A stretch of DNA of 64,000 nucleotides from an uncultured Prevotella sp. GTDB taxonomy: Bacteria; Bacteroidota; Bacteroidia; Bacteroidales; Bacteroidaceae. The notes beneath the pieces are model-generated. The model saw only the letters and a program-made list of their open reading frames with translations. It was not told the origin of the DNA and did no database searches. Location: assembly GCA_900318625.1 (NCBI GenBank), contig ONLG01000001.1, forward strand, positions 1 to 64,000, read 5' to 3'. Position numbers and translations under genes: made by a program. Position 1 is the stretch's first letter. Each line of letters opens with the position of its first letter. Shown one piece after another: positions 36,555 through 51,903 of this stretch.

Positions 36555-36608
36555 TGCCGGTTAGTAATTAAATTCAGTTAACTTAAAAATTAGGAAAGGA
36601 AACATATT

Positions 36609-37081: not shown

Positions 37082-37471
37082 ATGGGCAATTTCGTATGTA
37101 TGGGTGCCATGTTGCAGTGCAATTTCGGAATGGCTCCGTCGTCGCTGATGGTGACGGTGCCCCTCCGACCGAAATGCGGGAATATGCTGATGGCTAATAT
37201 CATGGATAACATACCAATGACCAATATCCTGCCATTCGGTATGTGCCAGTCGATGGCCAATCCCACTGTTGCATCCGCAACGGCAGCAGCTCAGGGAGTG
37301 CTTACACCGATGCCCTGCGTGCCTGTAATTGCAGCTCCCTGGGCTCCACCAGGACAAGTAAAGGTAATGAATATGCCTGCATTGATAAACAATGCGAAAT
37401 GTATGTGTCAATGGGGCGGTGTCATTTCCGTAAACAATCCCAGCGGCTGTCTTATGACACAAGGAAAATAA
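37082..37471 (+). CDS. PAAR-like spike-tip protein (DUF4280 type)
   Basis: A 129-residue protein rich in Met, Pro and Cys: FVCMGAMLQCNFGMAPSSLMV, PMTNILPFGMCQSMANPTVA, LTPMPCVPVIAAPWAP and CMCQWGGVISVNNPSGCLM. It matches the DUF4280/PAAR-like proteins of Bacteroidota, which cap VgrG and often bind a metal through cysteines. Being directly after the Hcp genes suggests it makes the tip of the injected needle. No effector domain is attached, so toxins would have to bind separately. Confidence 0.8.
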   Translation: MGNFVCMGAMLQCNFGMAPSSLMVTVPLRPKCGNMLMANIMDNIPMTNILPFGMCQSMANPTVASATAAAQGVLTPMPCVPVIAAPWAPPGQVKVMNMPALINNAKCMCQWGGVISVNNPSGCLMTQGK

Positions 37472-37481: not shown

Positions 37482-38852
37482 ATGCTTAGCAGAGTGATTC
37501 TGATAATGACAATGCTCATAACTATGCTCCCAGCGGTGGCACAGGATATGAGCATTGTCGGTTTTGCAAAACAAAAACACTCGCCGCTGAGCAGCATAAA
37601 GATAAAGAAAGACAAGAAGCAGGCCACCCTTCTGCTGACCACCGATAAGAAAGGATTTAAGTTCAAGGCTGACGGGCAGACTGACGTAGTGGCCGAGGAA
37701 GGCGACGGAATACTGACACTGAAAGTGCCGCACAAGACGCAATTCCTGACTATCACACATCCAGACTACGGGCAATACACTTGGCGCGTACCAGGCAAGA
37801 GCCTCAGAAAAAAGAAGTGCTATCATGCCTATTTGCAGACCTACAGTCCGAACGAAGAGTACAAGCTACAGAAGCAGTGGGTGGTGTTTATGGTGTCACC
37901 GGCTAAGGCCATAGTGCACGTAGACAGCACCTTGACACGCATCATGGATGGCAAGGCGCAGTTCCATCTGCCATTAGGCAAACACCCATATATGGTGGAA
38001 GCTCCTTTCTACCAGACCGTGAAAGACACTCTGGAAGTGACCGAGGAGCAGAAACTCATACTGCCCGTATACCTGCAACCCGAATACTCCTATCTTGCAG
38101 TGAAGACACCGTCGACAGCCTGGCGCATATTGATAGACAACCAGCAGATTGGTAACGGCGAGGCGGTGAGCAGCCATCTTTCTGCGGGTATCCACCGACT
38201 GTCGGTGTTCAAGGGTAACGTATGCTATTATGATGCTCCTGTGGAAGTTGGTGAGGCCGAGAAGAAAGTCGTCGTGCTGACTGCTGCCGATTTCCAGCCA
38301 AGGACATGGCGCGAGCAGAGAAAGTTACCTTCAGTAGTATCATCAGCCAATACACCTGTGTTATCCAGCTCAATTAACAGCACTCAAACAACTGCTGCCG
38401 ACGATTTTGCTCCCATCAAGGCTCCTGTCACCATCAAGGCTCCCGATGACGACACAGAGATTCTGCTAAACAGGGAAGTTGTGGGAAGAGGAACATGGAA
38501 CGGCATCCTTGACGAGGGCTTCTACATTATCAATACAAGAAAGGACAGCATGGAGTCGGCTGTAAAATACCTTTGGGTGAACGACGAGTTCCCAAAAGAA
38601 ATAAAGATAGGAGCACCACAGGTTGACTACGGTTTCCTTAATATCCACAGCAATGTGATGGGAGCAAACGTGTTTGTCAACGACAGCCTGATGGGGTTCA
38701 CTCCCTGCATCGTGGAGAACCAGCCCGCGGGCAAGACCTGCCTCATAAGACTTGAAAAAGCTGAATATAAGCCCGTAGAACAGACTGTGGTCGTTCTCGG
38801 AAACGACATGGTTGACGTTGAACTTATTATGAAAAGAAGGCATGACGATTAG
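37482..38852 (+). CDS. Secreted PEGA-like repeat protein in the T6SS operon
   Basis: A 456-residue protein with signal peptide MLSRVILIMTMLITMLPAVAQ. Its last three repeats are PEGA-like: YLAVKTPSTAWRILIDNQQIGNGEAV, VTIKAPDDDTEILLNREVVGRGTW and FLNIHSNVMGANVFVNDSLMGFTPCIVENQPAG. PEGA domains sit on outer surfaces. In this operon it may serve as an envelope part, taking over from TssJ/L/M or TssN-R proteins, which I could not recognise. Its stop codon overlaps the E1-like gene start by 11 bases, so the two are coupled. No known T6SS family matched. Confidence 0.72.
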   Translation: MLSRVILIMTMLITMLPAVAQDMSIVGFAKQKHSPLSSIKIKKDKKQATLLLTTDKKGFKFKADGQTDVVAEEGDGILTLKVPHKTQFLTITHPDYGQYTWRVPGKSLRKKKCYHAYLQTYSPNEEYKLQKQWVVFMVSPAKAIVHVDSTLTRIMDGKAQFHLPLGKHPYMVEAPFYQTVKDTLEVTEEQKLILPVYLQPEYSYLAVKTPSTAWRILIDNQQIGNGEAVSSHLSAGIHRLSVFKGNVCYYDAPVEVGEAEKKVVVLTAADFQPRTWREQRKLPSVVSSANTPVLSSSINSTQTTAADDFAPIKAPVTIKAPDDDTEILLNREVVGRGTWNGILDEGFYIINTRKDSMESAVKYLWVNDEFPKEIKIGAPQVDYGFLNIHSNVMGANVFVNDSLMGFTPCIVENQPAGKTCLIRLEKAEYKPVEQTVVVLGNDMVDVELIMKRRHDD

Positions 38853-39978
38853 CGAGTTCAGCCAAGAACGGATTTCCAGCGCCCACATCATGGTAGTAGG
38901 ATGCGGAGCCTTGGGCAACGAGGTGCTCAAGAACCTTGCCCTGTCGGGTGTGCGCCATCTGGTTGTTGTCGACTTCGATGTTGTTGAACCCGACAATCTT
39001 TCCCACTCCGTGCTGTTCACCGCCGACGATGCTGTTGCTGCCAGACGCAAGGTTGATGCAGTTGCCGAGTGCCTTCCCCATTTCAACCCCGACATTGAGA
39101 TAACACCTGTCTTTGGCGACATAGCCTACGATGTCGGAGTGGGGCTTATAATGGATATGGATGTCGTGATAGGCTGTGTCGACAACCGCTGGGCACGCTA
39201 CTGCATCAACCGCCACTGCATGAGGGCAGGCATCCCTTGGGTCGATGGGGGTATCGACACGCTGGAGGGCACAGCACGCGTCTTTGTCCCCGGTCAGAAT
39301 TGCTACGCCTGCAACCTTGGCCCAGAAGGTCTGCGCGACCTGGCTTACCGTATGCCATGCGCCGGTACAGTCAAGAGGAACATTGCAGCTGGGAAAGCTC
39401 CCACAACCAGCATCACAGCCTCTGTGATAGCAGCCGTACAAGTTCAGGAGGCTCTGAAGCTGCTTCATCCTCAGGCTTTAGCCGAAGGACGGCTCACCTC
39501 GCTTGTCGGCAAGATGTTTTGCTACGAAGGGCAGCATCTCAGCACGCGCACCGTTGCGTTCAAGGCATACGATGACGACTGTGCCGTTCACGAGCAGTGG
39601 ACTCCTGTTGCCCGCACGCCACTCACCCCTGCTGACACCGTGGCAGAAACATTGTCATGGATAGACAGGCAACTGAATATGGAGCAGCCGAGCATCATGC
39701 TGTGCGATGACTGCTTCGTAGACTATGTGGCGCTGCGCTCCGACAACACTGAGACCAGCGTGATGTGTCCCGGCAGGGCTGTAGCCGATGCCGTTTCGCG
39801 CCACCAACAGCTGCGCCACGTCCCCCTGAGCGGCATCTATCAGCACGAGTATCGCGAAATAAGCCGGCTGTTCCCATATCAGCAGCTCACACTCGCCCAG
39901 CTCGGCATCCCCGGCAGGGCTGTGCTGCCGGTGAGTTCAACAGGCGGCGAACATTATATAGAACTAAGTGGAGTATGA
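38842..39978 (+). CDS. E1-like ubiquitin-activating enzyme (ThiF/UBA family)
   Basis: A 378-residue adenylating enzyme. The Rossmann nucleotide site is MVVGCGALGNEVLKNLALSG (16-35), followed by VVDFDVVEPDNLSHSVLF and VVIGCVDNRWARYCIN. A CxxC (C154, C157) pairs with C247-x2-H250 as a probable zinc site, in place of the CxxC...CxxC of MoeB and ThiF. The conserved block KAPTTSITASVIAAVQVQEALKLL (185-208) follows C173, a candidate catalytic cysteine. Residues 255-378 are an extra C-terminal domain not found in MoeB/ThiF. It would adenylate the C-terminal Gly of the ubiquitin-like protein at 44197 and pass it on as a thioester. It overlaps TssG by four bases, so it is tightly embedded in the secretion operon. 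Confidence 0.9.
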   Translation: MTISEFSQERISSAHIMVVGCGALGNEVLKNLALSGVRHLVVVDFDVVEPDNLSHSVLFTADDAVAARRKVDAVAECLPHFNPDIEITPVFGDIAYDVGVGLIMDMDVVIGCVDNRWARYCINRHCMRAGIPWVDGGIDTLEGTARVFVPGQNCYACNLGPEGLRDLAYRMPCAGTVKRNIAAGKAPTTSITASVIAAVQVQEALKLLHPQALAEGRLTSLVGKMFCYEGQHLSTRTVAFKAYDDDCAVHEQWTPVARTPLTPADTVAETLSWIDRQLNMEQPSIMLCDDCFVDYVALRSDNTETSVMCPGRAVADAVSRHQQLRHVPLSGIYQHEYREISRLFPYQQLTLAQLGIPGRAVLPVSSTGGEHYIELSGV

Positions 39979-40760
39979 AAATAAACAGCAACCTATCTCA
40001 GATAAGGGCAGAAGTGCTGCTCAGCCATCTCTATCCGGAAATGGAAGAGCGGTGGAAGGTCCATCACGAAGGAGCCTTCTTCCGCAATTACAACGGCGAC
40101 TCCATGAGCATTGACGAGACCACAGGCGAAGTGCGGCTGTCGCGCGACGGATTTATGCGGCTGCTGCCACAAGGCGTGCTCACTGACGACGAAGAACTGA
40201 AGGGCGAAGATGCTCCAGAGAAGTTCAAGAAACTGGAGCACCGCCTCAGAGTGCTCCACGAAGCGTTCCTTCCGTTCGACACATACGCTTTCCAGAAGAA
40301 GCTCGCCATAGAACGGCAAGTGTCGCGTCTGCTCGACGACAAGCTCAGCTACGTACTGAGCCAGTACTTCGGCTTCGACCTGCCGGGCGAGAAGAATCCC
40401 CTCGTAAGGCAAGCTGCCGTATTGCTTCCGTTTGTGTGCCGCTACAAGGGCGACCTTGGCTTTATATCCAACATACTGGCAGCACTTATGAAATGTGAGG
40501 TGAGAATGTATCTCGCACGCTACAGCCACACCGACACCAACAAGAGTTGGCTGCCGTTCGTGAAATACGAACTGCTCATTCCCGGACTGACAGCTACCGA
40601 ATATCGCAGGCGCAGCGAAGACCTGCAACCGCTCGCCGATTTCCTCAGAGAGTGGATGCTGCCATGCGAGGTGCATTGCGAGATATGCATCAAGGAACAC
40701 GTAGCCTGCAAGTCCTTAGACGAAAGATTTACATTAGACTACAATACAGAATTAAGATAG
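39975..40760 (+). CDS. tssG: T6SS baseplate protein, TssG-like
   Basis: A 261-residue protein starting MKINSNLSQIRAEVLLSHLYPEMEERW. Helical segments are GFMRLLPQGVLTDDEEL, RVLHEAFLPFDTYAFQKKLA, PLVRQAAVLLPFVCRYKGDLGFISNILAALM and LQPLADFLREWMLPCEVHCEICI. It fits the divergent TssG of Bacteroidota T6SS, which joins TssF in the baseplate wedge; the evidence is position (E1-TssG-TssK-TssE-TssF) and length rather than a clear motif. I chose the ATG at 39975, which overlaps the E1 stop; a longer frame from 39765 would run through the E1 gene. Confidence 0.65.
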   Translation: MKINSNLSQIRAEVLLSHLYPEMEERWKVHHEGAFFRNYNGDSMSIDETTGEVRLSRDGFMRLLPQGVLTDDEELKGEDAPEKFKKLEHRLRVLHEAFLPFDTYAFQKKLAIERQVSRLLDDKLSYVLSQYFGFDLPGEKNPLVRQAAVLLPFVCRYKGDLGFISNILAALMKCEVRMYLARYSHTDTNKSWLPFVKYELLIPGLTATEYRRRSEDLQPLADFLREWMLPCEVHCEICIKEHVACKSLDERFTLDYNTELR

Positions 40761-40775
40761 AGACAACCCGTGAAT

Positions 40776-41972
40776 ATGGACATCAATTCAACAATCAACT
40801 GGAGTCCCGGCATGGAACTCACAGCCCGGACATTCATCGGAATGGAACAGCAGTTCGACCTCCGACAGCAGACTGCTCTCCGCCTTGCCCTCGGCAACGA
40901 CCAGATGGGACTGTTGCCCGGAACTGAATATAGCTGCAAGGGTGTGTTCGCCGGAAGCACATTCGAGATCGAACGGCTCCAGTGTGCCGCCGTGCTGCCT
41001 TCGGGCCGCATAGCCAATGCCGACGAGCGCGTGGCAGTTCCCATCCCAATGCTCTTCGGCGACACCTACTATCTCACGATGACAATAGGCCAGAGCTCCA
41101 CCCCCTTCGAGCGCGACGGCGTGGCATATCTGCGGCCAAACTACATCTATGCCATTCAGACACTGGAGGAGATGGAAGCATCCGATGTGATGCCGCTTGT
41201 GAGGTTCAAGGTACGCGAAGGTGTGTTCGCTGTCGATGACGATTTCATTCAGCCATGCCTCATGCTTTCTGGCGACGAGCGGTTTGCCCGCTACATCGAC
41301 CGATTTGCCAAAGCGCTGGAAACACTGGCTACCCACCCCAACATGGCCGAAGGCGACGGTAAACGGACAATCTATCGTTACCTTTTCCTGATGAAGGGCT
41401 ACAACAGCCAGCACCGGGTGAGCCAGCTCGTTCAGCTGACTCAGGAGATAGTGCAGGCCATAGACTATTTCATAGTGGCTCCAAACCAGCCTGAGCGTGT
41501 GCAGATTCCTTGGCCACACAGGGACGACGTGCAGCTGTGGCTGAGCTGGGTTGAAGACTACCTTTCTGCCGCTGCCACCATACTCGACAAGGTCGTGCTC
41601 GAGGACAATGCCATCGACTACGAAGCACTGCTGGCACAGGCCAAGCGCGAACTCTACGAACAGCTGCATCCCGAACTGCTGCAGAAGCTTGTCGCGCAGA
41701 CAAGGCAGGAGCTGCAACAGCAGATGCAACAGCTCACTGACTCTCTTACCACCTACGTGCGCGACACGCTCAAAGACGAACTCTCAAGACAGCTGGCCGA
41801 CGACATCGAGACACGCTCCACACAAATCAGCGACCGCCTTGCCCGGGACATCGAGCAGACCGCCGAGCGAATGGAGAAGTCGCTCTACGACAAGCTCTTC
41901 TCTGATGTATATATCGGAGTCTACAATGTGCTCCATGAAGAAAACGAAGACCATTTCATCCCACTGATATAA
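40776..41972 (+). CDS. tssK: T6SS baseplate adaptor TssK
   Basis: A 398-residue protein. It opens with INWSPGMELTARTFIGMEQQFDLRQQTALRLAL, equivalent to the WxxGM...Q(H/F) start of TssK, which hooks into the baseplate. Further blocks are YYLTMTIGQS, IQTLEEMEASDVMPLVRFKV, and the long helical C-terminal half (LLQKLVAQTRQELQQQMQQLTDSL, QISDRLARDIEQTAERM). TssK links the baseplate to the membrane complex. A GTG six bases upstream is possible; I chose ATG at 40776. Confidence 0.85.
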   Translation: MDINSTINWSPGMELTARTFIGMEQQFDLRQQTALRLALGNDQMGLLPGTEYSCKGVFAGSTFEIERLQCAAVLPSGRIANADERVAVPIPMLFGDTYYLTMTIGQSSTPFERDGVAYLRPNYIYAIQTLEEMEASDVMPLVRFKVREGVFAVDDDFIQPCLMLSGDERFARYIDRFAKALETLATHPNMAEGDGKRTIYRYLFLMKGYNSQHRVSQLVQLTQEIVQAIDYFIVAPNQPERVQIPWPHRDDVQLWLSWVEDYLSAAATILDKVVLEDNAIDYEALLAQAKRELYEQLHPELLQKLVAQTRQELQQQMQQLTDSLTTYVRDTLKDELSRQLADDIETRSTQISDRLARDIEQTAERMEKSLYDKLFSDVYIGVYNVLHEENEDHFIPLI

Positions 41973-41988
41973 GCCACACACACACCGT

Positions 41989-42438
41989 ATGCTGCAACTA
42001 CCCCTGACCATCACCCCCGAAGGACTCTCCCGGGAGAACGACCTCAGGCAGTCGCTCAACCAATCCATGCAGCTGCTGCTCACCACACCGCGTTTCAGCA
42101 CACCTGCCGACCTCCGTTTCGGTTTCGTGTTCTGCAACCTGCGCTTCGAGATATTCAACGAGCACGAAGGCGTAGTCTATGACTCCGGCATCGTCGAGGA
42201 GTCGCACGGCATCGAGGGACTCTACGACAAGAAGATTTCCGGCACATCAAAGAACCTCAACACCTTCGCAGCCGAACTGCGGGACGCGCTGGCCCGATAC
42301 GAGCAGCGGCTCAGCAACCCATCAGTCACCATGACCTACATCCGGGAGGAACGGCGCATCTATGTCACGATAAAAGGCATAATCGCCGACACACGCGAAA
42401 CATACACCTACACCACCACCCTGCGTGTGTGGAAATAG
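41989..42438 (+). CDS. tssE: T6SS baseplate TssE-like protein (gp25 family)
   Basis: A 149-residue protein with QSLNQSMQLLLTTPRFSTPADLRFGF, LNTFAAELRDALARYEQRLSNPSV and EERRIYVTIKGIIADTRETYTYTTTLRV. This corresponds to the gp25/TssE wedge protein, which has a helix-turn leading to I-x-Y-E-x-R-like positions and a C-terminal beta sheet. The EPR-type core motif is weak here (RYEQRL), as in other Bacteroidota. Its place between TssK and TssF supports the call. Confidence 0.72.
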   Translation: MLQLPLTITPEGLSRENDLRQSLNQSMQLLLTTPRFSTPADLRFGFVFCNLRFEIFNEHEGVVYDSGIVEESHGIEGLYDKKISGTSKNLNTFAAELRDALARYEQRLSNPSVTMTYIREERRIYVTIKGIIADTRETYTYTTTLRVWK

Positions 42439-42453
42439 CAAACACAAGCAACC

Positions 42454-44178
42454 ATGATACAAACCATATTTGAAACAAAACAAAGGGCTGCCGAATTGCT
42501 CCAGAAAGCCATCGCCATCTGGAGGGAGAGCGAACAGAGCGACTACCTTCAAGGAATAGAGAAAGACCCCGTGTTCGCGCTGCTCATTACTGCATTGGCA
42601 TATCAGGCAAATGAAACTGAGACTGAGATTGAGCAGATGAAGACGGAACTGCTCGAGGAGTTCGCCAATTTGCAGATTCCCTTCGAGATGGGACACGCCA
42701 TTCCTGCCACGGCTGTAGTTGAAACAGCATTGGAGGACAGTGTGTCAGAAATGGAACTCACGTCCAATCATGTCTTTACGCTGGGCTACAACGGATACGG
42801 CTTCATTCCTTTGCTACAGACGCGAGTCCTCAACGCATCAATACATTCAATCAACAGGCTTGACAGCCGCCGCTGGAAAGTCAATATAGTCTTCAAGTCA
42901 CCCGTCTCAGATTTGTCAGGCTTTACATTCGCCATCCGCAACCAGAACTTCCGCGACCTACGCGTGACCATGAACGGCACACCCCTGCCGCTGATAGCCC
43001 CCTGGGACTATTCCGAGTTGCCCTTGTCGCCATGCTTTGCCATAGATACGATACTCTACAACAAAGCCCAGACCTATATGGCCTCGTCACATTGCCTTGA
43101 CCTTTACGCAAGACAAGACGTGAGGATGTACTGTGTGAAACAGCACCAGCGTAGGAAGCTTCTGCCTTTCGAGACTGAGAACATCGAATTGGAATTTGAG
43201 TTCCTTGGCATCGACGAACATTTTGCTTTCGACAAGTCCTCCATCTCGCTTAACACGGTAATACTGGTCAATGCCATGCAGCAGGCCGCTACATTGTCGA
43301 CCGACAATCCTGTTGTCCGTGTTGTGGGCTACCAACATCAGGAGACGGCTCAAGCCGAGCCCAGCCAACAGTTCTTGCATATGCTTCGCCCATCTGAGGA
43401 TCAGCTTTATGGCAATATGCAGGTCGAAGTACGCAGAATGGCTGCCGACCGTTTCAATCAGGGCAGGCTGTTGAAGTCATTGAACTATATGCTGAGCAAG
43501 TATTACTCCGATTATTATGCCTTTATGAATATAAGCGGTGTAGCCACTGACAAAGTGCTGAATGGTCTTGCCCAGACCTTGGGACGGTTAGCAGAAGCTG
43601 TCAAGACGCAGAACACAGGAAGCCTGCCTGGGGTCTACCTAATGCTCAAGCCTTCCGGCGGACAGCGTCGCCAGCAAGGCAGCATCGAGATACATTACAT
43701 GACTACATCCGGTGCCGCAGTAAATGAAGCGCTCAATGTAGAGGCGCGCTTTATTCCGCCTTCCGGGTTCGACAGCAAAGCTACAAACCAGATAGCAGCA
43801 CCAGTGCCCGGATACGACGAGATTCGTGACGAACGTGCCGCTGCCAGCCTTTCCCATTATTACATGGCAACCAACGACCGTCTGGTGACACCTGCCGACA
43901 TCAAGCTGTTCTGCTACCATGAGCTCTTGATGCGCTATGGCATAGTGCGAGACAGGGTGAAGAGCCTTACCGTAAATACCCGCCAACAGTCAGACGTCAC
44001 GCAATGTGGCTACGAGATTTTGGTTGATATCACAGTAGCTAACAATTCGTTCATAAAGCGTGGCTTTGCCGACAGGATTGGTTCCATCGAGAAAATCATG
44101 GAGAGCATGATAAAAGTGCGTAGCACTAATATCTATCCCGTCAAGGTATCTATCGGAATAGAAACAGATGAAAAATAA
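42454..44178 (+). CDS. tssF: T6SS baseplate protein TssF
   Basis: A 574-residue TssF/VasA-like baseplate wedge protein. Typical parts are the helical start QRAAELLQKAIAIWRESEQSDYLQGIEKDPVFALLITALAYQANETETEIEQMK, the FANLQIPFEMGHAIPATAVVE strand, FVLNASIHSINRLDSRRWKVNIVFKSP-type domain, GVYLMLKPSGGQRRQQGSIEIHYMTTSG and the C-terminal DIKLFCYHELLMRYGIVRD. It forms the wedge with TssG and TssE. It is followed directly by the ubiquitin-like gene (18 bases to its ATG). The base composition is a little lower in GC than its neighbours. Confidence 0.85.
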   Translation: MIQTIFETKQRAAELLQKAIAIWRESEQSDYLQGIEKDPVFALLITALAYQANETETEIEQMKTELLEEFANLQIPFEMGHAIPATAVVETALEDSVSEMELTSNHVFTLGYNGYGFIPLLQTRVLNASIHSINRLDSRRWKVNIVFKSPVSDLSGFTFAIRNQNFRDLRVTMNGTPLPLIAPWDYSELPLSPCFAIDTILYNKAQTYMASSHCLDLYARQDVRMYCVKQHQRRKLLPFETENIELEFEFLGIDEHFAFDKSSISLNTVILVNAMQQAATLSTDNPVVRVVGYQHQETAQAEPSQQFLHMLRPSEDQLYGNMQVEVRRMAADRFNQGRLLKSLNYMLSKYYSDYYAFMNISGVATDKVLNGLAQTLGRLAEAVKTQNTGSLPGVYLMLKPSGGQRRQQGSIEIHYMTTSGAAVNEALNVEARFIPPSGFDSKATNQIAAPVPGYDEIRDERAAASLSHYYMATNDRLVTPADIKLFCYHELLMRYGIVRDRVKSLTVNTRQQSDVTQCGYEILVDITVANNSFIKRGFADRIGSIEKIMESMIKVRSTNIYPVKVSIGIETDEK

Positions 44179-44196
44179 TTGAATCATAATATCTAT

Positions 44197-44514
44197 ATGG
44201 AAGATTTCTTTTTGAATATCGTTTATAAAAACAAGTCTGTCAAGTTCAGGGTGACTAATCCCGAGGCCCCACTGGCAACACTGATGACAAACCTGCGCCA
44301 TGCCATCGGACAGGACGGACGACTTATCTTCGACTTCCCCTCCATTGACGATTCGGGCGCACCGCTCGACTACTTCTTTGGAAAAGAAGACCCCGAAGTG
44401 CATGAGATAAGGGTGATGCGCCCACGCATTGGTAAAACAGACCAGACGTTGGCCGACTACAACATCAACAATGGCAATACTGTCTACCTCATTCCAGACC
44501 CATTCCCGGGATAA
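44197..44514 (+). CDS. Ubiquitin-like protein ending in a glycine
   Basis: A 105-residue beta-grasp protein. It shows FFLNIVYKNKSVKFRVTN, then a helix TLMTNLRHAIG, LIFDFPSIDDSGAPLDYFF, HEIRVMRPRIG and TLADYNINNGNTVYL, which aligns with residues 55-69 of ubiquitin (TLSDYNIQKESTLHL). The protein then ends IPDPFPG and stops, so the last Gly falls on the Gly76 position of ubiquitin, with Pro instead of Gly75. No extension has to be removed. I chose the ATG at 44197; an upstream TTG at 44179 is unlikely. The E2 gene follows after nine bases and the E1 lies 4 kb upstream, so it is the likely modifier that they activate and pass on. Confidence 0.9.
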   Translation: MEDFFLNIVYKNKSVKFRVTNPEAPLATLMTNLRHAIGQDGRLIFDFPSIDDSGAPLDYFFGKEDPEVHEIRVMRPRIGKTDQTLADYNINNGNTVYLIPDPFPG

Positions 44515-44523
44515 AAGAAAAAG

Positions 44524-45129
44524 ATGAATACAGTCGAGGATTTTGAGTCTGTTCGCCTAAGTGGACGCCAGAGGCGACTATTATATGAATGGAGGAAGCT
44601 TGAAGAGCGACTGAACAACCGCTCCGACATCAGTTTCCACATTACACGGCAAGACACTGCCGGCCTGCCTGTAGCCTACACCATTGACTACCATATCCGC
44701 AGCATCTGCGGCGTGGAGGGGCTGGAGCATTTAGGCGAACCGGGAATTTCAAATCCTCCCTTGTTTGCCAGCGAATACAGGATGCTGATTGACCTGCCAC
44801 CGGGCTATCCCTGCATAGATTCGCCTCCGGCTCTACGCTTCCTGACCGCTGATGAGAATGGCAATCCTATCCCCCACCCCTGGCATCCCAACATACGATA
44901 CTTTGGAAGCTTCGCCGGACGTGTCTGCATCAACATGGCCGACAGCTACACAGATTTAGCCTGGGGAGCGGAAAGAGTTGGACAATATCTTCGCTATGAG
45001 CGCTATCATGCCGTCAACGAACCGCCATATCCTGAAGATATGCAAGTGGCAGCCTGGGTGATAAGACAAGGCGAGCCAAACGGATGGGTATATTTCAGCC
45101 AAGCTGCAAAAAGAATAGAACTGATATGA
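44524..45129 (+). CDS. E2-like ubiquitin-conjugating enzyme
   Basis: A 201-residue protein with the UBC fold order. It has a long N-terminal helix (RQRRLLYEWRKLEERL), the beta-meander YRMLIDLPPGYPCIDSPPALRFLTADENG, the HPN tripeptide (121-123) in WHPNIRYFGSFAGRVCIN, and the catalytic Cys at 135 followed by MADSYTDLAWGAERVGQYL and a C-terminal region PPYPEDMQVAAWVI. The HPN-to-Cys gap of 14 is longer than the ten seen in eukaryotic E2s. It would take the ubiquitin-like protein from the E1 by thioester exchange. The stop codon overlaps the next gene's ATG by four bases. Confidence 0.9.
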   Translation: MNTVEDFESVRLSGRQRRLLYEWRKLEERLNNRSDISFHITRQDTAGLPVAYTIDYHIRSICGVEGLEHLGEPGISNPPLFASEYRMLIDLPPGYPCIDSPPALRFLTADENGNPIPHPWHPNIRYFGSFAGRVCINMADSYTDLAWGAERVGQYLRYERYHAVNEPPYPEDMQVAAWVIRQGEPNGWVYFSQAAKRIELI

Positions 45130-46325
45130 TTTTCAACGAAACAAGAACTATTTTCACATTGCTGGCCATCAGCTTCTCCACCATGCTGTCTGCACAGGTG
45201 GTCAAGGAGATTACAGTCAGCCAGAAAGAGTCCTACACCGACCATCTGTCGTTGAAGAAAGACACACGCGACATGGATCTGATGGTGAAGTTTGTGTTCA
45301 ACGAAGAGGCTAACACACTGACCGTAAGCCTTATTTCCTACCGTTGCCTGTTTGTATTCTGGGAGCAGGTACGTTTCAAACCTACGTTCAGATGTCGCAA
45401 GCTCCGCCCTAAGATGCTGCCTTATGTGGCCCAGTTTGAGCCAGAAGATCGGTTCCGCATCTCCAAAGCCCTCAAGAAGTCACTCCCACGTCCCCGCAGG
45501 AAGTATGTGTTCAACCGCTGGAACACTTACGACGGCTTGCAGCCCGTGCCGCAAGACTACAAGCTCGTGAACGACTACATCAGCCAGACTTTCGGCATCA
45601 TGGACAAGCGCAATCAGGTGAGCTTTACTCTCCGCGATGTCTTTGTCATGGAGCACACTGACTACAACGACTACGAGCTGATGTTCGGAAAGGATATAAA
45701 CACGCAATACCAGATAACCATTCAGCGCGACCCGTGCTTCGGAAAGGACGAGCAGCTGAAAGGGGCACAGGATGCCGAGAAGAGCATTGCCACTGCCTAT
45801 GCTTCGTTCAAGCAGAAATATGGTTCGGGCAAGGTGTATAGCGACGAGAGCCTTAAACTGTTCCATGAGATGCAGGACGTGCTTATGGGGCAGTTCGCGC
45901 GCCAGGACATAACCAGCCCCTGTCCCGACATTCAGCAGGCATGGGACAGCTACAACCTATATACCGACTCCATCAGACAGATGACTTGCAAGGTAGTCTA
46001 TCTGCCCTCAGCTAACAAAAGCGGCACAGGGATGAGCGGCCAAGGCAATGCTGCCAACCTCATGGCCAGTGAGCCCGAAGCAGCTCCGACAGGGATTCTG
46101 CCGAGAAGCGTTCTTCAGAAAGCACGCCAGATAGACCAGATGGTGGCACGATGGCTGAACAGCACTGACAGCATGGAGCGCCGCGCAATAATCATGCAGT
46201 GCGGCGACATCATAAAGAGATGCAACGAGGAGATAGCCACTCAGGGTGTGGTCACTCACGAGCAGAAGCAGGCTGTGGACGTGTTCCGCAAGGCCGTGCG
46301 CTATTATTATAATATATGTAAATAG
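45126..46325 (+). CDS. Secreted protein of unknown function in the T6SS operon
   Basis: A 399-residue protein with signal peptide MIFNETRTIFTLLAISFSTMLSAQ. The first half is beta-rich (EITVSQKESYTDHLSLKKDT, LMVKFVFNEEANTLTVSLIS, VFVMEHTDYNDYELMFG). The second is helical (QDAEKSIATAYASFKQKYGSGKVYSD, VLQKARQIDQMVARWL, FRKAVRYYYNICK). There is no membrane helix or lipobox, so it is probably periplasmic. The start at 45126 overlaps the E2 stop, so it is translationally coupled. It may be part of the trans-envelope complex; no known TssJ/L/M or TssN-R sequence is recognisable. Confidence 0.75.
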   Translation: MIFNETRTIFTLLAISFSTMLSAQVVKEITVSQKESYTDHLSLKKDTRDMDLMVKFVFNEEANTLTVSLISYRCLFVFWEQVRFKPTFRCRKLRPKMLPYVAQFEPEDRFRISKALKKSLPRPRRKYVFNRWNTYDGLQPVPQDYKLVNDYISQTFGIMDKRNQVSFTLRDVFVMEHTDYNDYELMFGKDINTQYQITIQRDPCFGKDEQLKGAQDAEKSIATAYASFKQKYGSGKVYSDESLKLFHEMQDVLMGQFARQDITSPCPDIQQAWDSYNLYTDSIRQMTCKVVYLPSANKSGTGMSGQGNAANLMASEPEAAPTGILPRSVLQKARQIDQMVARWLNSTDSMERRAIIMQCGDIIKRCNEEIATQGVVTHEQKQAVDVFRKAVRYYYNICK

Positions 46326-46334
46326 GCAACGACT

Positions 46335-49300
46335 ATGACGAGCAAGCAAGCAATCATCACAACCCTGTGCGCCACCCTGCTGCTATCCGGAAGCATCAGG
46401 GCGTATGCCCAGAAAGATTCTCTGGTGAGCGACAGCGTTGAGACCAACCGCATAGAGATACAGAGCCGGATACAGTCTATGAAAGACGAGGCAAGGCAGA
46501 TATACGTGTCATTCCGCACTATGCCCACCAACGAAAAGGACAACAAGGTGAAAGCTCCTATGGCAAAGGCCATGGCTGAACGGCTCAAGTCAACCGACCT
46601 CGCAATGAAATCGCTCGAGTTCAAGTGGACTACTTACTACCAGACTATTCAGCCCACCATAGCCGACGACGACGAACTGCTGAACGAAGCCAATACTTTT
46701 CAGCAGACCAATCTCGCCGTAAGGGACTCGCTCAATGCCACCATAAACAGAGTGGCGCTGCTGCAGGCTTTCTGCAAAGCCGAGGCGTTCATGCCCACTC
46801 AGGATAAAGTTTATAAAGATATGCAGAAGAAAGCGCTCGAATTGTCGCTTGTCAGCAAGCTCGCTCCACAGCTTGAGAAACTGAAAGGCGAAGAGAAACT
46901 GGTGTTTGCAAACATACAGCAGCAGTACGACAAGGCCAAGGCTGCTGCCGATGCCATGCCCGGACTGAAAAGGCGAATGGCTGCTGTAGACCAGAAGTAT
47001 ATAGCCCTGAAAACCTGTTCCGAGAAGATACAGGCTGCCGAATACAAGCCTCTAATCCAGCGCGCCAAGGACTACCTGCTGGGACTGGCTGCCGTGGCCA
47101 TACTGCTGATGTTCATCAACATGGTTTCGAGCAAGATACAAGCCTACAAGCAAACCCGCGAAAGCATGAAGAAGATGAAGGAGATGATGAACAGCGATGG
47201 CAAGTTCTATCCCACCATAGCCATGCTGCCCTTCGTGCTCCTTGCCCTGACCGGCTGCGACAACACGCCAGAGCTGCCCGGCGACACAGAGGACCAGATG
47301 GCGGACTCGGTGCAGGTGATGCAGCTCTCGCAGCCAAGGTTCGCCAACCGATGGAAGACGATGGTTGTGGATGCCCGTATGGGCAGCAGCATCGCGACGG
47401 CTCCGCTGACGGACTCCCGGCAGGTGCGCATAGAGGTGACTGAGACCACGCACCGGCTGCTGACCGTCAGCCGGGGGCTTTCGCCCAGACTGGTGAGGGT
47501 GGACAACATGGCTTCGCGCCAAGCCCGACAGCTCGGCATAAAGATGCTTGCACTGGTGGACCTCACGCTGCCGCAGCCTGCCATAGACCGCGAGCGAATA
47601 GCGGTGATGCAGATGCGCGGCCTCTTCTCTGAGGGCAATCTCTACGTGGCTTTCATCCGCGGAACGGCTGTCACCGAGACCATGCCTGCCACCAACTATG
47701 TGCTGAGAAACCTGTTCCAGCAATGCGACTCCACCCGGAAATTCCTCTACCGCTCCATCCTCGCCAAGATGGACGAGATGGCCGACGGTGCCGACTGGAC
47801 TGCCGGGTCGCGCTACAGGGCTATGGTGGTGATGTCGGACGGGGCGACCTATCGCGACGATATGCCGATGGACCCGCAACACTTCGACATGGAGCGCCGA
47901 CTGGCCTACAGCGACACCACGCGTCCGCTCTACTATGCCGACTTCAGCGACGCGGGAGATGCCGACCCCTTGGCGTTCGACATGACTCAAGCCGACCTTG
48001 CGGGCTCCGACGACGGCGCGATGCTGCGGTCGCGGTGTGTTGCCTCGAAGGGACTGTATCAGCAACAGTTTGACTGGGCTGCCATCAAGGGCAACATTCA
48101 GCAGGCTTTCGGGCTCGACTCCGTAGACTACCGCTTCACGCTGGAAAACCCCGACAACAAGGTCTACAGCGGACGCAGCGGTCGCGACCTGCAGATAGCC
48201 TGCTATGATGCTGCCACCGACACGCTGATGGTGAAGGGCAACTGCCACTACAGGCTGGGCAGTGTCTACGACCCGGTGATCGTCAATCCCCGACCACTGC
48301 GCGACGTGCTGCTACAGGGCATAATCATAGCCCTGCTGCTTGCACTGGCGGTATATGTGGTGTTGCAGCTGATAGTGCCCTACATCAGGTATCGCCTGTT
48401 TCTGAGGAAGCACGTCGTGGCCTATTCGGGACCGCTGATGGGAGCTGAAGGGCTCATGCTCGGCGAGACGTGCTATCTGTGCAAGGCTCCCTTTACCGTG
48501 GGCGACAGGGTTGTGAAGAAATGCCGGCACAGCGTGCACCTCGACTGCTGGGAGGAGAACGGCGGTCAGTGTCCCGAATATGGCCGCCACTGCCACGAGG
48601 GACGCCACTACTACAACCGTCAGCAGCTGCTCGACCCGGAGAACGCCACCTTCTACCTGCGCTGGGTCATCGTCGCCATACTTGCCGGACTGGCAGCATG
48701 GCTCACATATACCGTGCAGATGCATCCGCTCCTGTCGGCGGTTTCGGAGCGCATCATACTCTTCATAGGCGACATCAGGCCCGGCACGCCGGAGGCTGAG
48801 GCAAGGATAGCCGAATACAGCTCTCTGGTGAACCTCTTTCCGTCGTTCGGCCTTTGCATAGGCTTCTTCCTCACCCTCATGCTCAGCTGCCTGTCGGTGG
48901 CTCAGCGCGAATGGTCGGTGCGCATTGCCGACATCACCCTGCGCACGCTGCTCGGCGGTCTGGGAGGAGGGCTGTTCTTCCTACTGGGCGGAGTCATGTC
49001 GGCTATAATCGGACTCAAGGAAAACACATTCCTCATAGACTGGATTCCCTGGTCGCTCACCGCCTACTGGATTGCGCTGTGCGTGACATGGAGAACGCGC
49101 ATCCGCCTCCACCACTCGCTCATCATAGGCGCAGTGCTCGTAGGCGTGGCATCAACCTATCTATGGGCATGGCTCTACACGGGTGCAACAGTAGACTACC
49201 GCCTTGCGCTGCTGGCCATCTTCATTATCTTCTCAATAGCGATGGCTATCAGCATTGCCAAGAACTCACCACGCTCCGAACGCTATTTCCTCACGACAAG

Positions 49301-49604
49301 CGGCATAGTGAAGCAGATGGACATAGCTCTATACAAGTGGTTCAAGGCCAACCCCAACGAGCACGTCACGATAGGACATTCCGTAGACTGCCACCTGCAA
49401 CTGTCGTGGGACATCCAGAGCGTGATAGCACCCGTGCAGGCCGAAATCTATATGCACCACGGCACGCCCAGACTCTATGCTCTCGAAGAGGGAGTCTTCG
49501 TCAACGGCAAGCCGCTGACTGTGGGCAAAGGCATCAGGCTCTATCACGGCAAGTCGTTCTCTATAGGCCAGACACTGTTCACGTATATTGAAAAGGACAA
49601 CTGA
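46335..49604 (+). CDS. Large membrane protein with vWA-like, RING-H2-like and FHA-like domains
   Basis: A 1089-residue protein. 1-25 signal peptide; 26-244 helical periplasmic part; TM 245-266; basic KKMKEMM; hydrophobic 292-308 with lipobox LTGC; 340-650 periplasmic, with a vWA-like core (KMLALVDLT, RAMVVMSDG); TM 657-684, followed by the basic RYRLFLRKH. Then a zinc motif C713-x2-C716-x13-C730-x-H732-x2-H735-x2-C738-x7-C746-x6-C753, a RING-H2-like pattern, then six more membrane helices (773-976) and a C-terminal FHA-like domain (1008-1085). By the positive-inside rule the RING and FHA parts are cytosolic, on the same side as E1 and E2. It is a candidate E3 ligase and also a candidate trans-envelope hub. 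The lipobox after an internal basic stretch suggests fusion of two ancestral genes. Confidence 0.8.
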   Translation: MTSKQAIITTLCATLLLSGSIRAYAQKDSLVSDSVETNRIEIQSRIQSMKDEARQIYVSFRTMPTNEKDNKVKAPMAKAMAERLKSTDLAMKSLEFKWTTYYQTIQPTIADDDELLNEANTFQQTNLAVRDSLNATINRVALLQAFCKAEAFMPTQDKVYKDMQKKALELSLVSKLAPQLEKLKGEEKLVFANIQQQYDKAKAAADAMPGLKRRMAAVDQKYIALKTCSEKIQAAEYKPLIQRAKDYLLGLAAVAILLMFINMVSSKIQAYKQTRESMKKMKEMMNSDGKFYPTIAMLPFVLLALTGCDNTPELPGDTEDQMADSVQVMQLSQPRFANRWKTMVVDARMGSSIATAPLTDSRQVRIEVTETTHRLLTVSRGLSPRLVRVDNMASRQARQLGIKMLALVDLTLPQPAIDRERIAVMQMRGLFSEGNLYVAFIRGTAVTETMPATNYVLRNLFQQCDSTRKFLYRSILAKMDEMADGADWTAGSRYRAMVVMSDGATYRDDMPMDPQHFDMERRLAYSDTTRPLYYADFSDAGDADPLAFDMTQADLAGSDDGAMLRSRCVASKGLYQQQFDWAAIKGNIQQAFGLDSVDYRFTLENPDNKVYSGRSGRDLQIACYDAATDTLMVKGNCHYRLGSVYDPVIVNPRPLRDVLLQGIIIALLLALAVYVVLQLIVPYIRYRLFLRKHVVAYSGPLMGAEGLMLGETCYLCKAPFTVGDRVVKKCRHSVHLDCWEENGGQCPEYGRHCHEGRHYYNRQQLLDPENATFYLRWVIVAILAGLAAWLTYTVQMHPLLSAVSERIILFIGDIRPGTPEAEARIAEYSSLVNLFPSFGLCIGFFLTLMLSCLSVAQREWSVRIADITLRTLLGGLGGGLFFLLGGVMSAIIGLKENTFLIDWIPWSLTAYWIALCVTWRTRIRLHHSLIIGAVLVGVASTYLWAWLYTGATVDYRLALLAIFIIFSIAMAISIAKNSPRSERYFLTTSGIVKQMDIALYKWFKANPNEHVTIGHSVDCHLQLSWDIQSVIAPVQAEIYMHHGTPRLYALEEGVFVNGKPLTVGKGIRLYHGKSFSIGQTLFTYIEKDN

Positions 49605-49630: not shown

Positions 49631-51823
49631 ATGAAGCTACTCACAAAGCTTAGCTTTAAGAAGCAACGCTCACAGTTCATCATTGTGATGCTTGTCTTGG
49701 CAGGACTGCTGACAGCTGCCACCTCTGCCGTGCAATACTGGTATGCCCATGAGGAGCTGCGCAAGAGCGCGCACGACCATGCCAAGTCCAGGCTGGAGCT
49801 GAAGAGCATGGAGATACAGGCTGCAATGACTTCAGTAGAGTCTGCCATCAACAACTCGGTGTGGATGGTTGAGAAACGTATCTACCAACCCGATTCCATT
49901 TACTCCATACTGCAACGGCTCGTAGCCCAAAACGTCCAGATAGTAGGAGCCACGGCTGCGTTCAAGGCCGACTTCTATCCTCAGTTCGGTCGTTGGTGCG
50001 AGCTGTATGTCAGCCAGCGCCGCGACGGTTCGTTCGAGCAGAAACAGATTGGCGGTCCACTCCACGACTATCTGCAGAGCGACTGGTTTCGCGAAGGCAT
50101 CAAGGCCAATGCCTGCAACTGGAGCGAGCCTTACTACGACAACATTGGTGCCAAGATGCTGGTATGCACCTATACCATGCCCATACGCAATGCCAATGGG
50201 CGCATCGTCGGACTGCTTGATGCCGACGTGTCGCTTGAATGGCTGGCGCATTTTGCCAACTCGCAGACCACTTACAAAAGCAGCTACAACGTAATTCTCT
50301 CGAAAGGCGGCAAGCTTCTGGTACATCCCGACAAGCATATCCTCCTCAGGTCAACCATGCGCGACCAGGATATCAGCCAGAAAGACAGGGCCTTCGACCA
50401 GATCAGCCGCCAGATGTTCAGGGGCATGAGCGGCCACTCGGAAGTAATCACCATGAAAGGCGAGAAGAAGCACGTATTCTTCACCCCGGTAAGGGGCCAC
50501 ACAGGATGGTCTATCGCAATGGTTTTCAACGACGACGAGATTTACGCCACTCTCCAGCAAGCCACCTTCCGTATGTCGGCCATACTCCTTGCCGGCCTGC
50601 TTCTGCTGGGTTACATCATCTGGCGCTCCATTCGCAACATGAGACGTCTCGAGGACACGCGCCGAGAGAAAGCCGCTTTCGAGCGCGAGCTGCGCGTTGC
50701 CAGCAGAATACAGATGGCTCTGCTGCCCAAAAGCTTTCCGCCCTACCCCGAACGCAACGACGTTGACCTCCATGCCACTCTCGTACCGGCGAAGGAAGTG
50801 GGCGGCGACCTCTACGACTTCTACATCCGCGACGAAAAGATGTTCTTCTGCATCGGCGACGTCTCTGGCAAGGGGATTCCAGCCTCGTTAGTCATGGCCA
50901 TCACGCGAACCCTGTTCCGCAACGTGTCGGCACGTGAGTCCAAGCCACACAGCATCGTCTCGGCAATGAACAACACCCTTGCCGAAGACAACCAGAACAA
51001 CTTCTTCGTCACACTCTTCGTCGGTGTGCTCGACCTGCCAACGGGTGTGCTGAGCTATTGCAACGCCGGCCACGAGCCACCGATAATCATCAATGAAACG
51101 GCAACACCCCTGAAAGTAGACTCCAACCTGCCCATCGGCGCTATCTCGCAGTGGCACTACACCATGCAGGAAATAACCATCACACCGCAGACAACGATTT
51201 TCCTATACACCGACGGAGTGACAGAAGCCAAGGATGCCGCCCACAACCAGTTTGGAAGGCAGCGGATGCTCAGGGAGCTCACTTCCAATGCCAATCCCAA
51301 GACGATTGTCGACAACATGACTGCCGCCATCCACTCGTTTGTAGGAGGAGCCAGGCAGAGCGACGACATAACGATGATGGCTGTATGCTACAACAAGCAG
51401 GAACGGGCTGTGCGCCTCAACCGCAGCCTTACGCTGACCAACGACGTGAGCAATATTCCCGAACTAACCAAGTTTGTCAACGAGGTGTGCAGGGAAGTCG
51501 ACTTCAACAACAGCAAGACCAAGCAAGTGCGTCTGGCTATGGAGGAAGCCGTAGTCAACGTCATTGACTACGCCTATCCCCATGGAACTACCGGAAAGAT
51601 ATACATTGAAGCCGTTGCCAACGACGAACGACTGAAGTTCACCATCACCGACAGCGGCAAGCCTTTCGACATCACTGCCTATCCGGAGGTAGACCTGAAC
51701 ATTCCAGCCGAAGAGCGCCCCATCGGCGGACTGGGCATACACATCGTGCGCCAGATGATGGACTCTATCAACTACAACCGAATTGACGGAAAGAACGTGC
51801 TGACCCTGCGCAAGAAGCTGTGA
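49631..51823 (+). CDS. SpoIIE-type phosphatase fused to an anti-sigma-type kinase, with extracytoplasmic sensor
   Basis: A 730-residue signal protein. It has TM1 (about 16-34), a dCache-like extracytoplasmic sensor (about 40-300; IYSILQRLVAQNVQIVGATAAFKADFY, AKMLVCTYTMPIRNANGRIVGLLDADVSLEWL) and TM2 (about 318-336). The cytosolic part has a short linker, a SpoIIE/RsbU PP2C domain (LVPAKEVGGDLYDFY, FFCIGDVSGKGIPASLVMA, FLYTDGVTEAKD, SDDITMMAV) and a C-terminal HATPase_c domain of RsbW type (RLAMEEAVVNVIDYAYPHG, GGLGIHIVRQMMDSI). The phosphatase would dephosphorylate the STAS protein next door and the kinase phosphorylate it, putting both sides of a partner switch in one chain. It follows the RING protein after 26 bases. 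Confidence 0.93.
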   Translation: MKLLTKLSFKKQRSQFIIVMLVLAGLLTAATSAVQYWYAHEELRKSAHDHAKSRLELKSMEIQAAMTSVESAINNSVWMVEKRIYQPDSIYSILQRLVAQNVQIVGATAAFKADFYPQFGRWCELYVSQRRDGSFEQKQIGGPLHDYLQSDWFREGIKANACNWSEPYYDNIGAKMLVCTYTMPIRNANGRIVGLLDADVSLEWLAHFANSQTTYKSSYNVILSKGGKLLVHPDKHILLRSTMRDQDISQKDRAFDQISRQMFRGMSGHSEVITMKGEKKHVFFTPVRGHTGWSIAMVFNDDEIYATLQQATFRMSAILLAGLLLLGYIIWRSIRNMRRLEDTRREKAAFERELRVASRIQMALLPKSFPPYPERNDVDLHATLVPAKEVGGDLYDFYIRDEKMFFCIGDVSGKGIPASLVMAITRTLFRNVSARESKPHSIVSAMNNTLAEDNQNNFFVTLFVGVLDLPTGVLSYCNAGHEPPIIINETATPLKVDSNLPIGAISQWHYTMQEITITPQTTIFLYTDGVTEAKDAAHNQFGRQRMLRELTSNANPKTIVDNMTAAIHSFVGGARQSDDITMMAVCYNKQERAVRLNRSLTLTNDVSNIPELTKFVNEVCREVDFNNSKTKQVRLAMEEAVVNVIDYAYPHGTTGKIYIEAVANDERLKFTITDSGKPFDITAYPEVDLNIPAEERPIGGLGIHIVRQMMDSINYNRIDGKNVLTLRKKL

Positions 51824-51903
51824 CACACCGTCAGCCTACAAAGCAGCAAGCCGGCCAGAAAGCCTTTCCCCCCTTCCTCTCGTCAACTAAAAAGCAACCA
51901 AAT

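What the first reader, a model, noticed from the sequence alone, without database searches (positions are those of the whole stretch)
38842..49604. A ubiquitin-like conjugation cassette (E1, modifier, E2, membrane RING) built into a T6SS operon
The same strand carries an E1-like enzyme (38842-39978), a ubiquitin-like protein (44197-44514), an E2-like enzyme (44524-45129) and a membrane protein with a RING-H2-like zinc motif (46335-49604). They are interleaved with baseplate genes (TssG, TssK, TssE, TssF), not appended, with stop/start overlaps on both sides (E1 overlaps TssG by four bases, E2 overlaps the next secreted protein by four). All catalytic landmarks are visible. No JAB/JAMM deconjugating protease is present, unlike the Bil and CBASS Cap2/Cap3 systems. 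I know of no published T6SS with an embedded ubiquitin-like system; the inference is that conjugation controls assembly or loads cargo.
Basis: partly seen in the sequence, partly recalled or inferred. Interest (0 to 1): 0.97.

Follow-up and report, generated by a model that had tools for sequence, protein, structure and literature searches.

The report
Ubiquitin-like cascade inside bacterial injection machine
In gut and rumen bacteria related to Prevotella and Bacteroides, the operon for a toxin-injecting nanomachine (type VI secretion system) carries, interleaved in a fixed gene order with its baseplate genes, an E1-like enzyme, a ubiquitin-like protein ending in glycine, an E2-like enzyme and a membrane protein with a RING-like zinc motif, which together would likely attach the small protein to a part of the machine and so control how it is built at the membrane.

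Summary
Confirmed and extended. Window 38842-49604 encodes an E1 (ThiF, 9e-50), a beta-grasp ubiquitin-like protein (UBL), an E2 with HPN...Cys, and a membrane protein with vWA, RING-like and FHA domains, interleaved with TssG-K-E-F. An E2-seeded genome scan confirmed 114 places and kept 80: 72 of 80 have E1-TssG-TssK-TssE-TssF-UBL-E2-secreted protein-RING protein in order; 8 are cut by contig ends. A TssF-seeded search gives all nine genes in 24 of 24 close loci (20 seen earlier). The UBL ends exactly ...P-G-stop in 84 of 84 rows. A distant T6SS group carries E1, RING protein and a JAMM-protease protein beside TssG-K-E-F in 15 of 16 fetched loci (the 16th is a 3.7-kb contig); the window's type has no JAMM match in 103 loci. 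The published membrane-complex protein TssN exceeds its cut-off in 0 of 42 cassette genomes and 10 of 13 others. Related cassettes sit beside an extracellular contractile injection system, beside SrfB/SrfC, or alone. Conjugation, its substrate and its role are inferred, not shown. Ten open-access paper searches found no report of this; key 2011 and 2025-26 papers were not held or not looked up.

The parts
31086..31769 (+). NusG/KOW-family antiterminator-like gene at the head of the operon (overlaps ClpV)
   Evidence: PF02357 4.4e-7, KOW 2.6e-6
31759..34065 (+). ClpV/TssH AAA+ ATPase
   Evidence: PF07724 1.5e-56
34097..34561 (+). TssB (sheath)
   Evidence: T6SS_VipA 0.03 only, and position before TssC
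34594..35952 (+). TssC (sheath)
   Evidence: PF17541 5e-100
36162..37007 (+). two Hcp/TssD genes (36162-36554, 36609-37007)
   Evidence: PF17642 1.8e-31 and 3.8e-21
37082..37471 (+). PAAR-like DUF4280 protein
   Evidence: PF14107 1.9e-29
37482..38852 (+). PEGA-domain protein with signal-like N-terminus, overlaps E1
   Evidence: PF08308 6.5e-14
38842..39978 (+). E1-like adenylating enzyme; invariant Cys173 (candidate thioester Cys), candidate zinc ligands C154/C157/C247/H250
   Evidence: PF00899 9e-50; conservation; PDB UBA7/UBA6/UBA1/SAE2/MoeB
39975..40760 (+). TssG-type baseplate protein (tentative name)
   Evidence: no Pfam hit; profile matches the corresponding gene of TssN-type loci
40770..41972 (+). 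TssK baseplate protein
   Evidence: TIGR03353 4.4e-5, VasE 2.5e-4, both under cut-off
41989..42438 (+). TssE (gp25-like)
   Evidence: PF04965 4.5e-9
42454..44178 (+). TssF-type baseplate protein
   Evidence: no TssF hit in Pfam itself; its profile matches TssF of other T6SS loci, one of which has PF05947
44197..44514 (+). ubiquitin-like beta-grasp modifier ending ...DPFPG-stop
   Evidence: C-terminus P-G-stop in 84 of 84 rows; fold
44524..45129 (+). E2-like enzyme, HPN 121-123 and Cys135
45126..46325 (+). secreted conserved protein (P413), no known family
   Evidence: no Pfam hit; 82 homologues
46335..49604 (+). membrane protein: fused coiled-coil/TM part, vWA, TM, RING-like, TM bundle, FHA
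47532..48125 (+). vWA domain, approximate: L018 residues 119-316 shifted by the offset of the RING cysteines
48471..48593 (+). RING-like zinc ligands C713...C753
49365..49568 (+). FHA domain
   Evidence: PF00498 1.5e-6, over cut-off
49631..52209 (+). SpoIIE-type phosphatase/GHKL protein (49631-51823) and STAS protein (51820-52209); in the E2-seeded set matched only in L016 and L017
53091..58434 (+). Hcp-like (53091-53540), unknown (53545-54024), VgrG (54115-58434)

Best explanation
The operon encodes a type VI secretion system together with an E1-like enzyme, a ubiquitin-like protein, an E2-like enzyme and a membrane protein with a RING-like motif, and this cassette likely attaches the ubiquitin-like protein to the machine's own baseplate or envelope proteins and thereby would license its assembly at the inner membrane. 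Steps: (1) the UBL is made with its C-terminal glycine already exposed (shown by sequence: ...PG-stop in every row of this type), so no processing protease would be needed (inferred); (2) E1 would adenylate that glycine and pass it to its invariant Cys173 and on to E2 Cys135 (inferred from residues and folds); (3) the membrane protein (predicted lipoprotein N-terminus in relatives, periplasmic vWA domain, transmembrane helices, cytosolic RING-like and FHA domains) would act both as envelope anchor and as E3-like platform, the FHA domain adding phosphothreonine control (predicted); (4) the target would be a TssG-K-E-F baseplate protein or the membrane protein itself (inferred only from gene interleaving and co-inheritance); (5) the module appears where the published TssN-type membrane complex is not found, so it would take over part of that complex's job (inferred).
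For: Nine genes in fixed order in 72 of 80 E2-seeded loci, the 8 others cut by contig ends. TssF-seeded loci of the same type: 24 of 24 with all nine. E1-TssG overlap in 58 of 75 loci, median -4 bases, with start codons chosen by script. UBL tail P-G-stop in 84 of 84 rows, 3 of them second copies of the same contigs; five distant T6SS loci read end ...AG-stop, 5 of 5. Within the nine-gene block UBL is the most conserved: mean pairwise identity 77.9% against 59 (E1), 59 (E2), 52 (TssE), 50 (TssK), 48 (TssF), 46 (TssG), 41 (P413), 39 (RING protein); outside it PAAR has 68 and TssC, in 13 loci only, 92.5. E2 HPN and Cys135 84 of 84; E1 Cys173 78 of 78 and 43 of 43 across all cassette kinds, where the genome's own sulfur-carrier ThiF has Pro. 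Folds: UBL, vWA and FHA. TssN over its cut-off in 0 of 42 cassette genomes and 10 of 13 other T6SS genomes; no E1, E2, UBL, RING or P413 match in 10 of 10 TssN loci; no TssN, TssP or TssR profile match in cassette loci. Distances of cassette and TssF correlate (E1 0.86, E2 0.82, RING protein 0.83, UBL 0.72; not corrected for species relatedness). Distant cassette locus L171 also encodes a Ser/Thr kinase and a PP2C phosphatase, fitting an FHA input.
Against: No substrate, thioester or conjugate has been observed. The RING scores are under Pfam's cut-offs and the last zinc spacing is unusual. The UBL model has no Foldseek match at E<=0.001. The window's own E1 has His55 where 77 of 78 homologues have Arg; the four database relatives fetched, the top four of 120 listed, also have His, so this lineage may be altered. 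The cassette is not strictly required: T6SS loci L141 and L147, nearest to the distant group in the TssF tree, show neither cassette nor TssN, and L148 likewise. L140 has E1 beside TssG-K-E-F but no UBL, E2 or RING match in the 20 kb read (genome 68% complete). Five cassette genomes have TssN matches at E<=0.001, all under the cut-off. Profile comparison finds no homology of the RING protein with TssR or TssN. E1 and TssF trees do not agree fully (L142). Cassettes also exist without any T6SS gene nearby. Eight weak TssF genomes and a second, weak TssF of G517 were not read.
Confidence: 0.55

Rival explanations
1. The UBL acts without covalent transfer, as a docking scaffold like the ubiquitin-like domain of EccD or the one reported for TssN; E1 and E2 would be non-catalytic scaffold proteins.
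For: EccD ubiquitin-like domains are among the top structural matches; TssN is reported to carry a ubiquitin-like cytosolic domain proposed to dock the baseplate (PMC10781749, passages); His55 in the window's E1.
Against: Catalytic Cys of E1 and E2, the HPN motif and the exact C-terminal Gly are invariant in the rows examined, which a scaffold would not need; distant T6SS relatives keep a JAMM protein, 15 of 15 plus L139 and L142.
Confidence: 0.17
2. The cascade modifies effectors, Hcp or VgrG, as a loading tag or to keep toxins harmless until fired, and not the machine's frame.
For: Hcp, VgrG and PAAR genes flank the block; one related cassette lies beside eCIS tube, sheath, PAAR and an eCIS_core gene.
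Against: The cassette is interleaved with baseplate genes in a fixed order while Hcp, VgrG and other flanking genes vary in place and presence; PAAR distances correlate less with the cassette proteins (0.53-0.64) than TssF distances do (0.72-0.87).
Confidence: 0.18
3. Quality control: UBL tags misassembled or spent baseplates and sheaths for removal by ClpV or a protease.
For: ClpV and the cassette lie in one operon in the window; a RING platform at the membrane could see docked baseplates (inference).
Against: ClpV-type ATPases are also present in T6SS loci without the cassette (L145, L146, L148, L184-L187); no proteasome-like Pfam hit among the window proteins scanned.
Confidence: 0.08
4. 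Sulfur-carrier or small-molecule chemistry (ThiF/MoeB-like) that happens to sit in the operon.
For: E1 belongs to the ThiF fold family and scores best in NCBIfam with ThiF/MoeB/SAMP-E1 models, below their cut-offs.
Against: An E2 with HPN-Cys lies in the same block in the loci read; the same genome has a separate ThiS-like, ThiF and JAB set on contig C20 whose ThiF lacks Cys173.
Confidence: 0.02

Closest known systems
Bacteroidota T6SS-iii with TssN-Q-O-P-R membrane complex (PMC10781749; PMC4714493)
   Same: TssB, TssC, Hcp, VgrG, ClpV, TssE/F/G/K core; TssR is reported to have a vWA-like domain and TssN a ubiquitin-like domain (PMC10781749, passages)
   Different: No TssN, TssP or TssR match in the cassette loci; instead E1, UBL, E2, secreted protein, coiled-coil membrane protein and RING/vWA/FHA membrane protein. 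PMC10781749 states that the membrane complex or part of it is found in all 443 systems detected; its main model required at least one such gene, and a second model allowed their absence (passages)
Bacterial ubiquitin-like operons (Bil, Bub, type II CBASS Cap2/Cap3; Iyer et al. 2006 type 6d)
   Same: UBL, E1, E2 and, in distant relatives, a JAMM/JAB protein
   Different: Separate E1 and E2 genes, HPN-Cys E2, a membrane RING/vWA/FHA protein, and embedding in a T6SS operon; PADLOC E1-E2 models match only the ThiF part of E1 (best 1.6e-15) and E2, UBL and RING protein have no PADLOC hit. In type 6d the E2 is described as lacking the conserved histidine (PMC1779556, table passage)
Prokaryotic RING E3 systems with YukD-like UBLs, E1, E2 and JAB (Burroughs, Iyer and Aravind 2011; recalled, nothing seen)
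   Same: By memory, standalone cassettes such as L013 and L229 look like what was predicted there; a UBL of L189 matches YukD weakly (1.3e-3, under cut-off)
   Different: The T6SS embedding, the absence of JAB with a pre-exposed C-terminal Gly in the window's type, and the eCIS neighbour; whether that paper noted any of these I could not check
ESX/T7SS EccD
   Same: Ubiquitin-like domain at a membrane secretion pore; among the top structural matches of the UBL
   Different: EccD's domain is fused to the membrane protein and not known to be conjugated (recalled)

Membership tests
Ubiquitin-like conjugation system | E1 of the ThiF fold with adenylation residues and a thioester Cys | tested here: met
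   PF00899 9e-50; G20, G22, G25, D46, N52, K70, D114, R119, C173 in 43 of 43; the window has His55 for Arg; thioester itself untested
Ubiquitin-like conjugation system | E2 fold with HPN and active-site Cys | tested here: met
   84 of 84; PDB matches at E<=0.01 only UBE2K/E2-25K, 8 of 8
Ubiquitin-like conjugation system | beta-grasp modifier with C-terminal Gly | tested here: met
Ubiquitin-like conjugation system | covalent conjugates on a target | not testable with these tools
   needs biochemistry
RING E3 ligase | cross-brace of eight zinc ligands with canonical spacing | tested here: inconclusive
   eight conserved Cys/His, last spacing x6 not x2; Pfam under cut-off
Bil / Bub / CBASS Cap2-Cap3 | match of E1, E2 and UBL to the family models | tested here: inconclusive
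   PADLOC 2023: only E1-E2 models hit the ThiF part of E1; no hit for E2, UBL or RING protein; this library may lack Bil and Bub models
Bil / Bub / CBASS Cap2-Cap3 | JAB/JAMM protease in the operon | tested here: not met
   no profile match in the window or 103 loci of its type; met in the distant T6SS group
Type VI secretion system | sheath, tube, spike, ClpV and TssE/F/G/K baseplate in one operon | tested here: met
   TssG, TssK and TssF by profile and position
T6SS-iii with TssNQOPR membrane complex | TssN and partners | tested here: not met
   no TssN in the genome (84.7% complete); 0 of 42 cassette genomes over cut-off; no TssN, TssP or TssR match in cassette loci. TssO was covered only by the Pfam scans; TssQ was not searched by name

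The most novel reading that the evidence does not exclude
A separate class of T6SS in which a dedicated ubiquitin-like conjugation cascade builds or licenses the membrane anchor: the RING/vWA/FHA lipoprotein is the envelope complex itself and the modifier is the bolt that joins the baseplate to it; the same module has been lent to other contractile injection systems (eCIS).
Probability: 0.3. Interest if true: 0.97.

Novelty: new variant of a known kind. Interest (0 to 1): 0.9.

Why it matters
It would put ubiquitin-style protein conjugation inside a bacterial weapon, in species titled as isolates (Xylanibacter ruminicola D31d, Bacteroides mediterraneensis An793, Mediterranea massiliensis, Parabacteroides distasonis An863, Millionella massiliensis). 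It questions the statement that the TssN-type membrane complex is part of all T6SS of the phylum (PMC10781749, passage), offers a defined E1-UBL-E2-RING set outside phage defence, and gives a natural series of cassettes with a JAMM protein (15 of 15 distant T6SS loci) and without it (0 of 103 loci of the window's type) to study how C-terminal processing was lost.

Tried and rejected
Homology of the RING membrane protein with TssR or TssN, of P413 with TssP, of the UBL with TssN, and of P413 with the secreted protein of L189: none detected by profile comparison, so I do not call the module a homologue of the known membrane complex. VIA-align of the RING-protein model listed nearly only vWA chains in its top 50; this says nothing about the RING part. 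A sequencing error as cause of His55: unlikely, the four top database relatives share it. Chance neighbourhood: rejected. Strict one-or-other replacement of TssN: weakened by three genomes with neither. Single recruitment of the cassette into T6SS: the TssF and E1 trees do not settle it. SpoIIE/STAS as core parts: rejected, matched only in L016 and L017 of the E2-seeded set. My first JAMM scan used a pattern so narrow that it would have missed two of the known JAMM proteins; it was redone with a loose pattern and a profile: no profile match in the window or 103 loci, one loose-pattern hit in a 96-residue frame of the window at 42183-42470, which overlaps tss genes and has no profile match. Samples show the system is patchy: 11 of 295 genomes with any TssF match, 4 of 295 with E1 at 1e-60, 3 of 395 with the RING profile, each count including the window's genome.
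Full report
What is there. From 31 to 58 kb one strand carries a T6SS operon: NusG-like, ClpV, TssB, TssC, two Hcp, PAAR-like DUF4280, a PEGA protein, E1, TssG, TssK, TssE, TssF, UBL, E2, a secreted protein, the RING membrane protein, SpoIIE, STAS, AraC-type regulator, Hcp-like, VgrG. Pfam and NCBIfam leave several of these unnamed or under cut-off (TssB, TssK, TssF, TssG, E2, UBL, RING protein), so I tested them by family alignments, folds and synteny.

The enzymes. The E2 search found 710 homologues. In the loci and earlier, HPN and Cys135 are present in 84 of 84 E2s; E1 Cys173, C154 and C157 in 78 of 78, C247 and H250 in 79 of 79 (each set includes the three repeated contigs and the outlier L013). 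An E2 profile matches only UBE2K/E2-25K in the PDB (8 of 8 at E<=0.01); an E1 profile matches UBA7, UBA6, UBA1, SAE2, the NEDD8 E1, MoeB and ThiF. Across all cassette kinds Cys173 is kept in 43 of 43 E1s while the genome's own ThiF on contig C20 has Pro. The window's E1 differs at one conserved residue, His55 for Arg (77 of 78 Arg); the four top database relatives share His, so it looks like a lineage trait of unknown effect.

The JAMM protein. A profile built from eight such proteins matches 15 of 15 distant T6SS loci (L169-L183) and L139 and L142, with the HSHP...S..D motif, and nothing in the window or in 103 loci of its type (the 103 include about 20 repeats).

Synteny and co-inheritance. 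One search confirmed 114 stretches and kept the best 80 loci, titled Prevotella/Xylanibacter, Bacteroides, Parabacteroides, Alistipes, Millionella, Mediterranea, Paludibacteraceae or unplaced Bacteroidales and Bacteroidia. 72 of 80 have E1-TssG-TssK-TssE-TssF-UBL-E2-P413-RING in order on one strand; the remaining 8 stop at contig ends. E1 and TssG overlap in 58 of 75 (median -4). TssF-seeded searches avoid choosing loci by E2: 54 of 348 genomes of the genus have a TssF match, 24 strong (E<1e-150) and 30 weak. All 24 strong ones have the nine genes (own; L010-L012; 20 of 20). Of the weak ones I fetched 20: 15 carry E1 and the RING protein beside TssG-K-E-F, 4 carry neither and 1 (L136, a 3.7-kb contig) cannot tell; two more were read later and have TssN; 8 were not read. 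In the 295-genome order sample 11 matched: the window's own genome, 3 more with E1 (L139, L140, L142) and 7 without (L141, L143-L148). Extended flanks add UBL and E2 for L171, L142, L139 and for L169 and L181 (L193, L195). L140 shows E1 only. Within the nine-gene block the UBL is the most conserved protein, and cassette distances track those of TssF, without correction for species relatedness.

Relation to the known membrane complex. TssN (PF17555) was sought in 55 T6SS genomes: over cut-off in 10, all without cassette; 0 of 42 with cassette (5 of these have matches of at most 23.4 bits against a cut-off of 30.3); 3 genomes have neither. 'With cassette' means all nine genes in 24, E1 plus RING protein in 17, E1 alone in G277. 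The 10 TssN loci show no cassette gene, and profiles of TssN, TssP and TssR find nothing in the cassette loci. The Bacteroidota membrane-complex paper (PMC10781749; passages read) reports TssN-R or part of them in all 443 systems it detected and no other kind in the phylum; its main model demanded at least one of these genes, though a second allowed none. The loci here do not fit that statement. No sequence homology links the RING protein to TssR or TssN.

Other homes of the cassette. L013: E1-UBL-E2-JAB-RING beside SrfB and SrfC. L217/L218 (another family of the class): nSTAND NTPase-E1-UBL-E2-JAB-RING; next to L217 lie PAAR, tail tube, sheath and an eCIS_core protein of a contractile injection system. 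L228/L229: E1-UBL-E2-JAMM-RING near a contig end, no T6SS match. So the cassette is older or more mobile than its T6SS use; the trees do not show how often it was recruited.

Mechanism and rivals. The interleaving with baseplate genes, the co-inheritance, the membrane RING-like platform and the absence of TssN make conjugation to a baseplate or envelope component my first choice (0.55). A non-covalent scaffold role and cargo tagging remain open. Nothing here shows a conjugate.

Literature. Searches of the open-access library (listings seen) gave no paper on a T6SS with a ubiquitin-like cascade; Coyne et al. 2016 (PMC4714493) has no occurrence of ubiquitin, ThiF, FHA or SpoIIE in its main text (term search). 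PMC1779556 passages describe bacterial E1-E2-UBL-JAB operons; the passages shown do not mention this context. PMC11354881, PMC13373217, PMC7159879 and PMC3482391 were seen in passages only. Two papers on bacterial UBLs and Bub cited there are not held, and the 2011 RING paper is recalled and was not looked up, so prior mention elsewhere is possible.

Noticed in passing
31086-31769: A NusG/KOW paralogue overlaps the start of ClpV at the head of this ~27-kb operon; it may be a dedicated antiterminator.
   Followed up: no
49631-52777: SpoIIE phosphatase/GHKL, STAS and AraC-type regulator follow the RING gene; SpoIIE and STAS matched only L016 and L017 of the E2-seeded set.
   Followed up: partly
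38842-39978: E1 codon 55 is His (CAC) where nearly all relatives have Arg; shared by the four top database relatives.
   Followed up: partly
L171 3783-9404: Distant cassette T6SS locus also encodes a Ser/Thr kinase, a PP2C phosphatase and a LysM-glucosaminidase next to TssF.
   Followed up: partly
L217, L220: A related E1-UBL-E2-JAB-RING cassette lies beside an extracellular contractile injection system with an eCIS_core protein that also has a calpain-type protease domain.
   Followed up: partly
L013: A related cassette lies beside SrfB (1e-213) and SrfC (Virul_Fac, 1.8e-139) genes; their biochemical role is unknown to me.
   Followed up: no
L141, L147: T6SS loci with neither TssN nor the cassette, near the distant cassette group in the TssF tree; their envelope complex is unknown.
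   Followed up: partly
G000 contig C20 (L219) 605-2151: Separate ThiS-like, ThiF and Prok-JAB genes; the JAB is the only Prok-JAB match in this genome.
   Followed up: no
G517 contigs C79 and C81: One genome has both a strong TssF of the window's type and a second, weak TssF on another contig, so both cassette kinds may coexist.
   Followed up: no
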